From the NCBI RefSeq assembly GCF_004339595.1, contig NZ_SMFU01000009.1, forward strand, positions 372,001 through 436,000: a stretch of 64,000 nucleotides of DNA, given 5' to 3'. The stretch's first letter is position 1; each line of letters opens with the position of its first letter. Position numbers and translations under genes: made by a program. This DNA comes from Marinobacterium mangrovicola. Lineage in GTDB: Bacteria; Pseudomonadota; Gammaproteobacteria; Pseudomonadales; Balneatricaceae. Positions 15,330-61,985 of this stretch are shown piece by piece. The notes below the pieces were generated by a model, which was not told the DNA's origin, made no database searches, and saw nothing but the letters and a program-made list of their open reading frames with translations.

Positions 15330-16197
15330 ACCTTTTTCTCCGCTTGCACAGATTCTGAGCCGCATTATTCACCAGAACAGCGACCATCGCTCTGCGTCGG
15401 TAACACCACCGGCTGTGGATAAAAGGCAGGTTGGCAAATCCAGAGGCCAGGTTCATCTGATCGGTTGCGGCCCCGGCGCCGCAGACCTGCTTACCGTCCG
15501 TGCCGATCAGCTGATCCGCAACGCTCAGGTAGTGATCTACGATCGACTGGTAAGCAAAGAGATTATCGATCTGATACCAGCGAGCGCTGAACGCCACTAC
15601 GTCGGCAAAGCCCCGGGGAATCACAGTGTGCTGCAGTCGAAAATCGGCGAACTGATGGTGAGTGAAGCGCGACGTGGAAAGAGCGTTCTTCGCCTCAAGG
15701 GCGGCGACCCTGCCATCTTTGCACGGATGGCAGAGGAGATAGATGCATTGAACCATGCCAGCATCGATTGGCAGATTGTACCTGGCATCACTGCTGCCTC
15801 CGGCTGTGCCGCCGCGGCCGGCATCCCACTGACCGATCGCGACAGTGCCCATCAGGTACGCTTTATCACCGCGACCCATCATGCAGATCATTTGCGCCAC
15901 GACTGGTCGTCGCTGGCCCGACGCGATCAGACGCTGGTGTTCTATATGGGCCTGGAGGCTCTGCCTTCCATCAGCGCCCGGCTGCAGAAACACGGTCTGC
16001 CGGCCGACTGGCCGATTCTGCTGATCGAAAACGGTACCCGTGCCGAGCAGCGCAATCTACTGGCCACTCTCGGCACCATCGTCGAGAAAACACAACAGGC
16101 GCAATTCCAGACACCCAGCCTGATCATCGTTGGTGAGGTAACACGCACCGCAAAGCAGCAGGCGATAGCCCTTGCCAGAGCGCAGGAGGTCGCCTGA
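15316..16197 (+). CDS. cobA: Uroporphyrinogen-III C-methyltransferase
   Basis: Adds two methyl groups to uroporphyrinogen III to make precorrin-2, the first step to sirohaem, the cofactor of assimilatory nitrite reductase. SUMT features are VHLIGCGPGAADLLTVRA, the VVIYDRLVS block, LRLKGGDPAIFARM and VPGITAASGCAAAAGIPLT. Compared with short SUMT proteins it has a roughly 45-residue N-terminal extension. I chose the ATG at 15316 (293 aa) because AAGGAAG precedes it. An ATG at 15289 is also in frame. No CysG-type oxidase/chelatase domain is fused, so sirohaem completion needs another gene. Confidence 0.94.
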   Translation: MFLSKPFSPLAQILSRIIHQNSDHRSASVTPPAVDKRQVGKSRGQVHLIGCGPGAADLLTVRADQLIRNAQVVIYDRLVSKEIIDLIPASAERHYVGKAPGNHSVLQSKIGELMVSEARRGKSVLRLKGGDPAIFARMAEEIDALNHASIDWQIVPGITAASGCAAAAGIPLTDRDSAHQVRFITATHHADHLRHDWSSLARRDQTLVFYMGLEALPSISARLQKHGLPADWPILLIENGTRAEQRNLLATLGTIVEKTQQAQFQTPSLIIVGEVTRTAKQQAIALARAQEVA

Positions 16198-16233
16198 CAA
16201 TGGGCGCGATCTTTGCGAGGAGTACAAGCGGTC

Positions 16234-16818
16234 GTGGCGAGCGAAAACAACAGAATAACAAACGATAGAAAAAACTATACGGGGTTGGTGCTTGCGGGCG
16301 GCCGTGGCCGCCGTATGGGTGGCCAGGATAAGGGCCTGATCAATCATGATGGCCAGCCCCTGGTCAGCTATTCGCTGCAGGCGCTGCAACCTCACTGCCA
16401 ACAGATCTATATCAACTGCAACAGAAACCAGGCGGCTTACGCCGCTTTCGGCTTTCCACTGATTTCGGATCCGGACGACAGTTTCCCCGGCCCGCTCAAA
16501 GCCTTGGCTGCTCTGCTGCCCAATCTACCCGAAAACGACCTGCTGATTCTGCCCTGTGATACACCGGAGATCGGCCCTGCGCAGATGCAAACGCTCATCG
16601 ATGTCAGTACCAGCTACCCCGGGCACTGGGTCTACCTCCGTGCCGATGGCAGGGATCACCCACTGCATGCCCTGTTACCTCAATCGATCAAACCGCTGCT
16701 ACTGGAGTTTATCCATCAGAGCGGTGAGCAGCGCCTGATGCGAGCCATTGACGCCCTCCCCCATGTGGCCGTAGAGCTGACCGATTCTCTGCTTCTTAAC
16801 CTGAATAGAATGAAATAG
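16234..16818 (+). CDS. mobA: Molybdenum cofactor guanylyltransferase
   Basis: Transfers GMP from GTP to Mo-molybdopterin to form the bis-MGD cofactor needed by NasA. The nucleotide-binding signature LAGGRGRRMGGQDKGL is near the N-terminus, and LLILPCDTPEIGP carries the metal-binding Asp. The start is uncertain. No ATG fits, so I prefer the GTG at 16234 (194 aa, the usual MobA length), with GAGGAG about 12 bp upstream. A TTG at 16213 would add seven residues. It is the last gene of the nasA operon. Confidence 0.9.
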   Translation: MASENNRITNDRKNYTGLVLAGGRGRRMGGQDKGLINHDGQPLVSYSLQALQPHCQQIYINCNRNQAAYAAFGFPLISDPDDSFPGPLKALAALLPNLPENDLLILPCDTPEIGPAQMQTLIDVSTSYPGHWVYLRADGRDHPLHALLPQSIKPLLLEFIHQSGEQRLMRAIDALPHVAVELTDSLLLNLNRMK

Positions 16819-16834
16819 CCGCCACGCCGAATTT

Positions 16835-16849
16835 TAGGAAAAATTCCTA
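16835..16849. promoter_or_regulatory. Inverted repeat at the sRNA promoter
   Basis: TAGGAA-AAA-TTCCTA is perfect and its right end overlaps the TATAGT -10 candidate. It is well placed for a transcriptional regulator of the RNA. It does not resemble the TGTAAG/CTTACA GacA element. Confidence 0.4.
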
Positions 16850-16859
16850 TAGTCCACAG

Positions 16860-17032
16860 GGCGCGGCTGAGGGATCATATGCTCATCCGCTGACGGGATC
16901 GCAGCAACGGCAGGAAGCCGTTTTCGGATGTGGGTAAGGAAACTCGCAGGCAATGGATAGCCTGGTATTGCGAAGGAAAGCGGCAGGACGCCAAGGAGGC
17001 TTGCACTACGGAACGTGTGCAAGCCTTTTTTT
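16860..17032 (+). ncRNA. Putative CsrA/RsmA-sequestering sRNA (RsmY/RsmZ/CsrB-like)
   Basis: About 173 nt between mobA and nadE hold ten GGA motifs (16872, 16896, 16913, 16926, 16938, 16955, 16975, 16986, 16995, 17010). Several are exposed in hairpin loops. AACGGC/GCCGTT presents AGGAA (16906-16922), GCTG/CAGC presents GGGA, GGGT/ACTC presents AAGGAA, CAGGC/GCCTG presents AATGGATA, and GGC/GCC presents AGGAC. The terminator loop also contains GGA. Repeated A(N)GGA in loops plus an intrinsic terminator is the hallmark of RNAs that titrate CsrA/RsmA. A TATAGT -10 candidate (16848-16853) sets the start. I see no clear GacA box. There is no credible coding frame. Confidence 0.75.
16997..17032 (+). 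terminator. Intrinsic terminator of the sRNA
   Basis: AGGCTTGCAC (16997-17006) pairs perfectly with GTGCAAGCCT (17017-17026) and is followed by seven T residues. The apical loop contains a GGA. Confidence 0.92.
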
Positions 17033-17157
17033 ATTTGTACCCGCCAGCTTTACTCAGCGGCAGCCCCTCCCCAGAGACCACCACCTCGATTTTATTCATC
17101 GCTGTGCCAGGTTACCCCAGCACGAAGACGCAATGTTTAGCGGGCGGCGAGCGTTAA

Positions 17158-18786
17158 TTACTCGCCTGGCTTCCATCCCGAAGTAATCGGATAACGCCGG
17201 TCCCGACCAAAACCTCTCTGGGTAAGGCGCGGCCCCACCGGCGACTGGCGTCTTTTGTACTCGTTGATATCCACAAGCCGTACCACACGATTCACGTCCG
17301 CCTCGGCGAAGCCTTCATCGATAATTGCCCGGGCGCTGTAGTCTCGCTCAACGTACAGTTCCAGAATTCTATCCAGTACATCATATTCCGGCAGGCTGTC
17401 CTGGTCCTTCTGATCAGGCGCCAGCTCGGCTGACGGCGGACGATCGATAACCCGCTGCGGAATCGCCGGCGAGATACCGTTACGGTAAGTCGCCAGTCGG
17501 TACACCAGGGTTTTCGGTACATCCTTGAGCACATCGAAACCACCGGCCATATCGCCGTATAGCGTGGAGTAACCCACTGCCATTTCGGATTTGTTGCCGG
17601 TGGTCAGTACCAGATATCCTTTCTTGTTGGAGATCGCCATCAGCAGCACACCGCGACAGCGAGCCTGAAGGTTCTCCTCAGTGGTATCGGCCTTGGTACC
17701 CGCAAACTCATTCGCCAGCGCCGCCATAAAGCTTTCGTACATCGGCTCGATAGAGATCACGCTGTGGCGGATGCCCAGCAGATCCGCCTCTCCGGCGGCA
17801 TCTTCCACGCTCATACTGGAGGTATAGCGGAACGGCATCATCACCGCTTCGACCCGATCGGCACCCAGTGCGTCCACGGCAACTGCGGCGGTCACGGCAG
17901 AGTCGATACCACCGGACAGGCCGAGAACAACGCCCTTGAAACCGTTCTTATTGACGTAGTCCCGCACGCCCAAGACCAGCGCGTCATAGACAGACTTCTC
18001 GAAGGAAGGCACCTCAATGGTCGGCTGTTCAGGCGTGACCTGACCCAATACCGGATCGATACTGAAGGCATACAGCCCTTCTTCAAAAAATGCTCCTGCA
18101 AATACCTGCCGACCGGCGGCATCCACCGCCTGGGAACCGCCATCGAAAATCAACTCATCCTGACCGCCCACCTGGTTGACGTAGAGAATCGGACAACCTG
18201 CGGTCTGTGCCTGGCGCGCCAGCAGGTCGGCACGCTGTTCGGCTTTTTTGGAATCAAAGGGAGAAGCGTTGATATTTAGGATCAGACGCACGCCAGCCGC
18301 TTTGAGCTGCTGAACCGGAGCCGTGTGCCAGATATCCTCGCAGACACTCAGGCCTACCGGATAACCGTCCAGATCAATCACTCCCGGCTCGGTGCCAGCA
18401 ACAAAGTAACGCTGCTCGTCGAATACCTGGTAGTTCGGCAGACACTGCTTGGCGTACTCGGTGAGGATCTCGCCGTCACGAATCACGCCGAGCATGTTGT
18501 ACAGGGCACCATTGCGGTAACGGGGATATCCCAACAGCAAGGTAATACCGCGCACTTCACTGAGCACCCGCTCCAGCGCCTGCTCGATACGGATCTCCAG
18601 GCTCGGACGCAGCAGCAGATCCTCCGGCGGATAGCCGCTCAGGGCCAGCTCGGGGAACATGACCAGATCGGCGTTTAGCTCGTCCCTGGCTTTACATGCA
18701 GTCTCGATAACCCGTGCGGTGTTGCCCGGAATATCACCCACCAAAAGATTCAGCTGGGCCATGGCGACCCGAATCGGCTTACTCAT
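17158..18786 (-). CDS. nadE: Glutamine-dependent NAD+ synthetase
   Basis: Final step of NAD synthesis, amidating deamido-NAD with ammonia released from glutamine. The N-terminal nitrilase-fold glutaminase domain (about 1-250) shows the Glu-Lys-Cys triad context (FPELALSGYPPEDLL, EYAKQCLPNY, GLSVCEDIW). The C-terminal synthetase domain carries the PP-loop GLSGGIDSAVT and the TGNKSE block. The 542-residue length fits two-domain bacterial NadE. It ends 125 bp from the convergent sRNA terminator. thiO ends 19 bp upstream, so the two may share a transcript. Confidence 0.96.
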   Translation of the reverse strand: MSKPIRVAMAQLNLLVGDIPGNTARVIETACKARDELNADLVMFPELALSGYPPEDLLLRPSLEIRIEQALERVLSEVRGITLLLGYPRYRNGALYNMLGVIRDGEILTEYAKQCLPNYQVFDEQRYFVAGTEPGVIDLDGYPVGLSVCEDIWHTAPVQQLKAAGVRLILNINASPFDSKKAEQRADLLARQAQTAGCPILYVNQVGGQDELIFDGGSQAVDAAGRQVFAGAFFEEGLYAFSIDPVLGQVTPEQPTIEVPSFEKSVYDALVLGVRDYVNKNGFKGVVLGLSGGIDSAVTAAVAVDALGADRVEAVMMPFRYTSSMSVEDAAGEADLLGIRHSVISIEPMYESFMAALANEFAGTKADTTEENLQARCRGVLLMAISNKKGYLVLTTGNKSEMAVGYSTLYGDMAGGFDVLKDVPKTLVYRLATYRNGISPAIPQRVIDRPPSAELAPDQKDQDSLPEYDVLDRILELYVERDYSARAIIDEGFAEADVNRVVRLVDINEYKRRQSPVGPRLTQRGFGRDRRYPITSGWKPGE

Positions 18787-61549: not shown

Positions 61550-61906
61550 TTACTTACGGATCGGCTTGCGCGGGCCCTTACGGGTGCGAGCATTGGTCTT
61601 GCTGCGCTGACCGCGAACCGGCAGGTTACGACGGTGACGCAGGCCACGGAAGCAACCCAGGTCCATAAGACGCTTGATGTTCATGTTGACTTCGCGACGC
61701 AGGTCGCCTTCAACTGTCAACTTGGCAATTTCACCACGAACATTATCGAGCTGCTCTTCGGACAGATCACCAACCTTAGTGGTCGGGGCGATGCCAGTAG
61801 CATCCAGGATCTGCTTAGCAGTCGTGCGGCCAATACCGTAAATGTAAGTCAGAGAAATTACCGCATGCTTATTGTCAGGAATATTGACGCCAGCTATACG
61901 GGCCAT
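61550..61906 (-). CDS. rpsM: 30S ribosomal protein S13
   Basis: 118 aa, [30 protein letters not shown], ending in the tRNA-contacting basic tail. First gene of the alpha operon, with its own promoter upstream. Confidence 0.98.
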
Positions 61907-61985
61907 TCAATGTACTCCATGTTTCTGTCCCCGACTGACTAATTGCGGGAACCGTTTTAATCAAATAGTTCGTGGAAGGCGCGCA

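What the first reader, a model, noticed from the sequence alone, without database searches (positions are those of the whole stretch)
16860..17032. Likely RsmY/RsmZ/CsrB-type regulatory RNA between mobA and nadE
Ten GGA motifs in about 173 nt, at least six presented in small hairpin loops (best: AACGGC-AGGAA-GCCGTT at 16906-16922), finish with a perfect 10-bp terminator and T7. This is the design of RNAs that sequester CsrA/RsmA. It is absent from any protein-only annotation. Its promoter lacks a recognisable GacA box and instead has a perfect TAGGAA/TTCCTA repeat over the -10, so control may differ from the known Gac/Rsm RNAs. Its neighbours (nitrate assimilation and NAD synthesis) are not ones I associate with known Rsm RNAs.
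Basis: partly seen in the sequence, partly recalled or inferred. Interest (0 to 1): 0.8.

Follow-up and report, generated by a model that had tools for sequence, protein, structure and literature searches.

The report
CsrA-sponge RNA with new switch
Between two ordinary genes lies an unannotated small RNA that very probably soaks up the global regulator CsrA; it and sister RNAs in related marine bacteria share a DNA switch unlike the one known for such RNAs, alongside a changed version of the protein expected to throw it.

Summary
In detail: ten GGA motifs, the AACGGC-AGGAA-GCCGTT hairpin and a perfect 10-bp terminator. Comparison supports a real RNA gene: four of the seven other genomes of the genus carry a homologue in the same mobA-nadE gap, inverted in two, and hairpin 2 keeps all 6 pairs in 5 of 5 sequences, 3 of them with compensated changes. 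No Rfam family reaches its cut-off.

The odd promoter repeat is the main result. TAGGAA-N3-TTCCTA is shared by several GGA-rich RNAs: 19 of 20 boxes in the genus precede 6-11 GGA in 200 nt, and box variants occur in 77 of 116 family genomes (about half of these wider sites precede no obvious RNA). It does not lie over the -10: conserved spacing puts it near -42 and the RNA start near 16885.

A GacA profile finds strong GacA in 14 of 21 genomes of other families of the order but 0 of 36 of this family, which instead has a diverged GacA-like regulator with an altered recognition helix, often just downstream of uvrC. Best reading: a CsrA-sequestering RNA in a rewired Gac system. The RNA part is strong by sequence; the regulator-box link is correlative. 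Nothing has been tested at the bench.

The parts
16835..16849 (.). Promoter box TAGGAA-AAA-TTCCTA, predicted activator site centred at about -42
   Evidence: Shared with sister RNAs; only match with at most 1 mismatch in the window
16873..16878 (+). Predicted -10 element GATCAT
   Evidence: Aligned position of CATAAT/CATTAT/CATCAT-like hexamers in related promoters; weak in the window itself; inference
16885..17032 (+). CsrA-sequestering small RNA gene; start inferred, end at the terminator T-run
   Evidence: GGA content and fold; homologues in G003, G002, G005, G006
16889..16905 (+). Hairpin 1, GGA in loop
   Evidence: Minimum-energy fold; GGA at 16896 unpaired 0.98
16906..16922 (+). Hairpin 2 AACGGC-AGGAA-GCCGTT
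   Evidence: Covariation in 5 sequences; GGA unpaired 0.92
16947..16964 (+). Hairpin CAGGC-AATGGATA-GCCTG
   Evidence: GGA at 16955 unpaired 0.88
16982..16992 (+). Hairpin GGC-AGGAC-GCC
   Evidence: GGA at 16986 unpaired 0.93
16997..17032 (+). Intrinsic terminator, 10-bp stem, GGA in loop, T-run
   Evidence: Sequence
16213..16818 (+). Flanking MobA-like gene (context)
   Evidence: TIGR02665 143 bits, cut-off 151.85
17158..18786 (-). Flanking nadE (context)
   Evidence: NF010588 760.8 bits, cut-off 479

Best explanation
16885-17032 (+) encodes a CsrA/RsmA-sequestering small RNA: its looped GGA motifs bind CsrA dimers and so free CsrA's target mRNAs. Transcription is switched on by an activator bound to TAGGAA-N3-TTCCTA at about -42, a usual position for activators that contact RNA polymerase beside a weak -35. 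The activator is most likely the family's diverged GacA-like response regulator (G000:C1:1125392-1126063), presumably driven by the BarA/GacS-like hybrid kinase (G000:C3:332142-334796). The RNA is one of a small set sharing the box, at least two in this genome. Shown by computation: conservation, structure, inversion in two genomes, GGA richness, shared box and spacing, no canonical GacA found in the sampled family, CsrA present. Inferred: transcription and start site, CsrA binding, regulator-box pairing, kinase-regulator pairing. RNA part about 0.92 likely; regulator-box part about 0.65.
For: Homologues in the same gap in 4 of 7 other genus genomes, inverted in G005 and G006. Hairpin 2: 30 of 30 cells paired, covariation 0.70 against 0.32 in shuffles, 0 of 500 reach it. 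Box 19-mer with up to 2 mismatches: 20 sites in 8 genus genomes against 1 for the reversed control; 19 of 20 precede 6-11 GGA in 200 nt. Family: 141 sites against 13 for the control, 77 of 116 genomes; 53 of 144 sites have 7 or more GGA downstream against 3, 1 and 10 in three control stretches. Strong GacA in 14 of 21 other-family genomes, 0 of 36 here. Helix KT(V/I)N(S/T)YRYR in 14 of 14 GacA against K-T-x-H-x-H-R-x-N in 24 of 24. Same contig as uvrC in 24 genomes: same strand in 23, within 11 kb downstream in 15. Best NCBIfam model is UvrY/SirA/GacA. CsrA in 57 of 57 genomes, one copy in G000.
Against: No expression or binding data. G030 and G092 have boxes but no good match to the regulator. 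About half of the family-wide box sites precede no GGA-rich stretch. The tree does not place the regulator with GacA; its GacA score (150.8) is under the cut-off of 280 and only just above the next model, MctR (144.7), and a second G000 regulator (L232, 130.2) also ranks the GacA model first. G043 and G047, in other families, have low-scoring GacA-like genes beside uvrC, so a low score alone is not loss. G042 has canonical GacA but no clear GacA box near its CsrB-like RNA.
Confidence: 0.75

Rival explanations
1. The RNA is a CsrA sponge, but the box is read by another DNA-binding protein (another NarL-type regulator or another family of activator or repressor).
For: Regulator-box link is correlative: 63 of 89 good genomes with the regulator have a box against 2 of 8 without, P 0.015, not corrected for kinship, groups sorted by hand. 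A second G000 regulator (L232) also ranks the GacA model first.
Against: In G016 and G029, which carry box RNAs, the diverged regulator is the only NarL-type match at E<=1e-30 (capped first look, weaker ones could be missed). Altered helix, uvrC neighbourhood and absence of canonical GacA all point the same way. Other families of DNA-binding protein were not screened.
Confidence: 0.27
2. The element is a small RNA that acts mainly by base pairing with mRNAs, or a protein-binding RNA for something other than CsrA; the GGA motifs are incidental.
For: CsrA binding was not tested; the RNAs share the box but little sequence.
Against: GGA is enriched in otherwise dissimilar RNAs behind the same box; hairpin 2 changes its stem but keeps GGA in the loop in 5 of 5.
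Confidence: 0.06
3. Not a transcribed gene: a chance GGA-rich gap with a bidirectional terminator for nadE and mobA.
For: No expression data; no Rfam match at gathering score.
Against: Conserved promoter box, covarying hairpin, terminator and inversion as one unit in relatives; 0 of 200 shuffles as stable.
Confidence: 0.02

Closest known systems
CsrB/CsrC and RsmX/RsmY/RsmZ CsrA-sequestering RNAs (Rfam RF00018, RF00084, RF00195, RF00166; numbers for CsrC and RsmY recalled)
   Same: Short intergenic RNA, many GGA in small hairpin loops, intrinsic terminator, host has CsrA
   Different: No family cut-off reached; TAGGAA-N3-TTCCTA at about -42 instead of a GacA box; other genomic neighbours
BarA-UvrY / GacS-GacA two-component systems (E. 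coli, PMC4682653; Marinomonas PpoS-PpoR, PMC8523701; passages seen)
   Same: BarA-like kinase, NarL-type regulator, CsrA and sponge RNAs; uvrC-pgsA neighbourhood
   Different: Regulator and kinase below curated cut-offs (150.8 of 280; 543.1 of 890); helix HAHR instead of NSYRYR; regulator downstream rather than upstream of uvrC; in E. coli the csrB UvrY site is centred at about -183, and Marinomonas RNAs carry the canonical TGTAAGN6CTTACA box

Membership tests
Rfam PrrB_RsmZ (RF00166) | Score at or above the gathering cut-off of 44 bits | tested here: not met
   18.4 bits, E 0.27; no match in G000
Rfam CsrB (RF00018) | Score at or above the gathering cut-off of 71 bits | tested here: not met
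   Not listed at E<=10 in 15500-18500; no match in G000
Rfam RsmY and CsrC | Score at or above gathering cut-off | tested here: not met
   Not listed at E<=10 nor at gathering score in the window
CsrA-sequestering RNAs as a functional class | Several GGA motifs exposed in hairpin loops | tested here: met
   9 GGA in 152 nt, 5 with unpaired probability 0.88 or more
CsrA-sequestering RNAs as a functional class | Independent unit with own promoter and intrinsic terminator | tested here: met
   Terminator; box; inverted in G005 and G006; by sequence only
CsrA-sequestering RNAs as a functional class | CsrA in the host | tested here: met
   G000:C2:165113-165268, 89.6 bits, cut-off 27
CsrA-sequestering RNAs as a functional class | Binds and titrates CsrA | not testable with these tools
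   Needs binding assay or co-purification
Gac-controlled Rsm RNAs | GacA box TGTAAGN6CTTACA upstream | tested here: not met
   None with up to 3 mismatches in 16300-17040
UvrY/SirA/GacA regulators (NF007018), for the diverged regulator | Score at or above 280 bits | tested here: not met
   150.8 in G000, 200.6 in G008; a canonical GacA (G042) scores 307.7
UvrY/SirA/GacA regulators (NF007018), for the diverged regulator | gacA-uvrC-pgsA gene order | tested here: inconclusive
   Within 11 kb downstream of uvrC on the same strand in 15 of 24 same-contig genomes, not upstream; uvrC-pgsA-regulator order seen in G008; 74 kb away in G000
BarA/GacS kinases (NF008318) | Score at or above 890 bits | tested here: not met
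   543.1 bits, best of the models listed; its PF09984 sensor domain passes its own cut-off (42 against 22.1)

The most novel reading that the evidence does not exclude
A whole gammaproteobacterial family has rewritten the Gac-Rsm switch: canonical GacA is gone, a GacA descendant with a new recognition helix reads a new box (AAAAW-TAGGAA-WWW-TTCCTA-TAT) at about -42, and several unrelated CsrA-sponge RNAs, this one included, carry that box. It would be a natural case of co-evolution between a transcription factor and its DNA code inside a global circuit.
Probability: 0.6. Interest if true: 0.75.

Novelty: new variant of a known kind. Interest (0 to 1): 0.64.

Why it matters
Neither Rfam nor a GacA-box search finds these RNAs, so Csr control in this marine family would look absent. 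If the regulator-box pairing is right, the family shows a switch of binding code in a two-component system whose main direct targets in E. coli are two RNAs (PMC4682653, passages), which makes co-evolution of helix and site directly testable. The box is also a simple pattern for finding further CsrA-sponge RNAs.

Tried and rejected
Rfam scans of the region, the window and 20 related loci gave nothing informative for these RNAs; weak ctRNA_p42d and SNORD hits were taken as terminator resemblance or chance. DNA similarity in plasmids and phages: no match. DNA similarity in relatives found the RNA only in G003 plus a terminator fragment in G005; looking in the same gap worked better. I first took TATAGT beside the repeat as the -10; the alignment of relatives speaks against it. 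MAFFT over the five full-length RNAs aligns the middle poorly, so covariation was counted only for hairpin 2, whose homologous segments I chose by eye, which favours the structure. The tree could not place the diverged regulator relative to GacA. Scanning 20 fetched regulator, kinase and uvrC regions, the only box with at most 1 mismatch is beside the regulator in G001, so no autoregulation is claimed. I did not work out what the box sites without a GGA-rich stretch do.

Full report
WHAT IS THERE. The mobA-nadE gap holds 10 GGA motifs, the described hairpin and a perfect 10-bp terminator with a T-run. The 173-nt strand folds at -69.6 kcal/mol, z -3.86, 0 of 200 shuffles as stable. The 152 nt 16882-17033, which begin 3 nt before the re-placed start, contain 9 GGA; dinucleotide shuffles average 3.7 and 0 of 200 reach 9. 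The same count in homologues: G003 8 GGA (0 of 200), G006 11 (3 of 200), G005 9 (5 of 200), G002 9 (3 of 200). Neighbours: a MobA-like protein (143 bits, just under the cut-off of 151.85), NadE (760.8, cut-off 479), upstream a uroporphyrinogen-III methyltransferase and a molybdopterin oxidoreductase resembling assimilatory nitrate reductase but under the model cut-offs.

CONSERVATION. Among named genomes NadE is nearest Marinobacterium (73% to M. sedimentorum, 71% to M. rhizophilum, the best 80 of a capped list). The genus set holds 8 genomes. G003 has the RNA at 82% identity. G002, G005 and G006 have a diverged homologue in the same gap, in the same direction in G002 and inverted in G005 and G006. 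Inversion speaks for an independent unit rather than a tail of mobA or nadE. In G001 a different gene follows nadE; G004 and G007 gave no NadE match good enough to find the gap. Hairpin 2 keeps 6 of 6 pairs in 5 of 5 sequences; 3 pairs change on both sides, covariation score 0.70 against 0.32 in shuffles (0 of 500 reach it), and sliding the partners destroys it. The loop keeps GGA in all five. The segments were chosen by eye, which favours the structure.

PROMOTER BOX. The 19-mer of the window's promoter with up to 2 mismatches occurs 20 times in the 8 genus genomes (reversed control: 1) and in 22 of 57 relatives. Of the 20, 19 precede 6-11 GGA within 200 nt; the exception is L110 in G007 with 2. 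The RNAs behind it are not all alike: one group begins GGATCTCCTGTTCA (18 aligned; 12 of 25 predicted pairs compensated, mainly in the terminator), another is GGGA-rich at its 5' end (L122, L126, L127, L129). In the family a variant is present in 77 of 116 genomes, 141 sites against 13 for the control, summed by hand from the table. Of 144 sites with a full 200 nt, 53 have 7 or more GGA downstream, against 3 on the complement, 1 upstream forward and 10 upstream reversed, the last partly boxes used in the other orientation. About half of all sites precede no GGA-rich stretch; unexplained. In 51 non-redundant sites, chosen for at least 10 of 12 core letters and 7 or more GGA, an upstream A-tract (A in 32, 42, 38 and 33 of 51) and an ATAAT-like element 30-31 nt past the centre are conserved though absent from the search pattern; the trailing TAT was in the pattern. 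That spacing puts the palindrome near -42, the window's -10 at GATCAT 16873-16878 and the start near 16885. The 80 named nadE loci (868 kb) contain no box at 11 of 12 core letters.

REGULATOR. CsrA is found in 57 of 57 genomes, one copy in G000. A GacA profile from three proteins beside uvrC in other families finds strong GacA (296-422 bits) in 14 of 21 genomes of other families and in 0 of 36 of the window's family, whose best score is 182 bits. Two other-family genomes, G043 (169) and G047 (122), have low-scoring relatives beside uvrC, so a low score alone does not prove loss. The window's family has one regulator clade (24 members in the tree, support 96/90, position relative to GacA unresolved) with an invariant K-T-x-H-x-H-R-x-N helix, against KT(V/I)N(S/T)YRYR in 14 of 14 GacA. 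Its profile matches 107 of 116 family genomes at E<=1e-40; three of these are weak (G004, G030, G092) and two partial (G006, G061). NCBIfam ranks UvrY/SirA/GacA first, below the cut-off of 280: 150.8 in G000 (next model, MctR, 144.7) and 200.6 in G008; another G000 regulator, L232, also ranks it first at 130.2. It shares a contig with uvrC in 24 of 30 genomes where both were located, on the same strand in 23 and within 11 kb downstream in 15; in G008 the order is uvrC-pgsA-regulator; in G000 it is 74 kb away. A BarA/GacS-like kinase is present in G000 (543.1 bits, cut-off 890); its sensor domain is found in 37 of 57 genomes. In G001 a box RNA lies beside the regulator gene. In G055, with canonical GacA, the RsmZ-type RNA has a near-perfect GacA box; in G042, also with canonical GacA, no clear box was seen.

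AGAINST. G030 and G092 have boxes without a good regulator match; both are drafts (93% and 98% complete). Among 97 good genomes the association is 63 of 89 with the regulator against 2 of 8 without (P 0.015), sorted by hand and not corrected for kinship. The 19-mer count misses weaker boxes such as TCAGAAAAATTCCTA before a CsrB-like RNA in G011. Of 17 box sites scanned for a GacA box with up to 3 mismatches, 1 (L126) has one. Nothing here shows binding.

LITERATURE. Six searches of the paper library listed no title or abstract start describing these RNAs or this box; listings were capped, and 0 papers hold both Marinobacterium and CsrA. From passages only: Marinomonas mediterranea has canonical GacA boxes at its two RNAs and ppoR beside uvrC (PMC8523701); in E. 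[quoted passage not shown] That -42 is a usual activator position is recalled.

VERDICT. An unlisted CsrA-sponge RNA, about 0.92 likely; controlled by the diverged GacA-like regulator through the new box, about 0.65 likely.

Noticed in passing
L125 (G000:C3:640669-640687 and downstream; outside the window): Second box in the same genome, followed by a different GGA-rich RNA (9 GGA in 200 nt) beginning GGATCTCCTGTTCA, with relatives in many genomes of the family.
   Followed up: partly
L329, L322, L166, L171: Two or three box-plus-GGA units in a row in one locus, as if these RNA genes duplicate in tandem.
   Followed up: no
L219:2393-3064 and relatives (alignment A2): Many of the GacA-like regulators have an insertion in the receiver domain after the conserved Asp-x-x-x-Pro stretch, absent in G008, G023, G035 and G011.
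   Followed up: no
G014, G028, G050: Unusually many CsrA-family matches: 9, 14 and 9, where most genomes have one to three.
   Followed up: no
L224:2180-2671 (G001:C25): A box RNA lies directly beside the GacA-like regulator gene in G001 only.
   Followed up: partly
family-wide box sites such as L266, L269, L263, L243: Sites of the form (A/C)TAGGAAAAATTCCTATTT recur in several genera; some have GGA-rich sequence on the other side, others none.
   Followed up: no
window 61874-61957 (-): Alpha operon ribosome binding site (RF00140), 38.7 bits against a cut-off of 38.
   Followed up: no
L115:54-126: Group II intron match (RF00029, 48.1 bits) upstream of a box site in G016.
   Followed up: no
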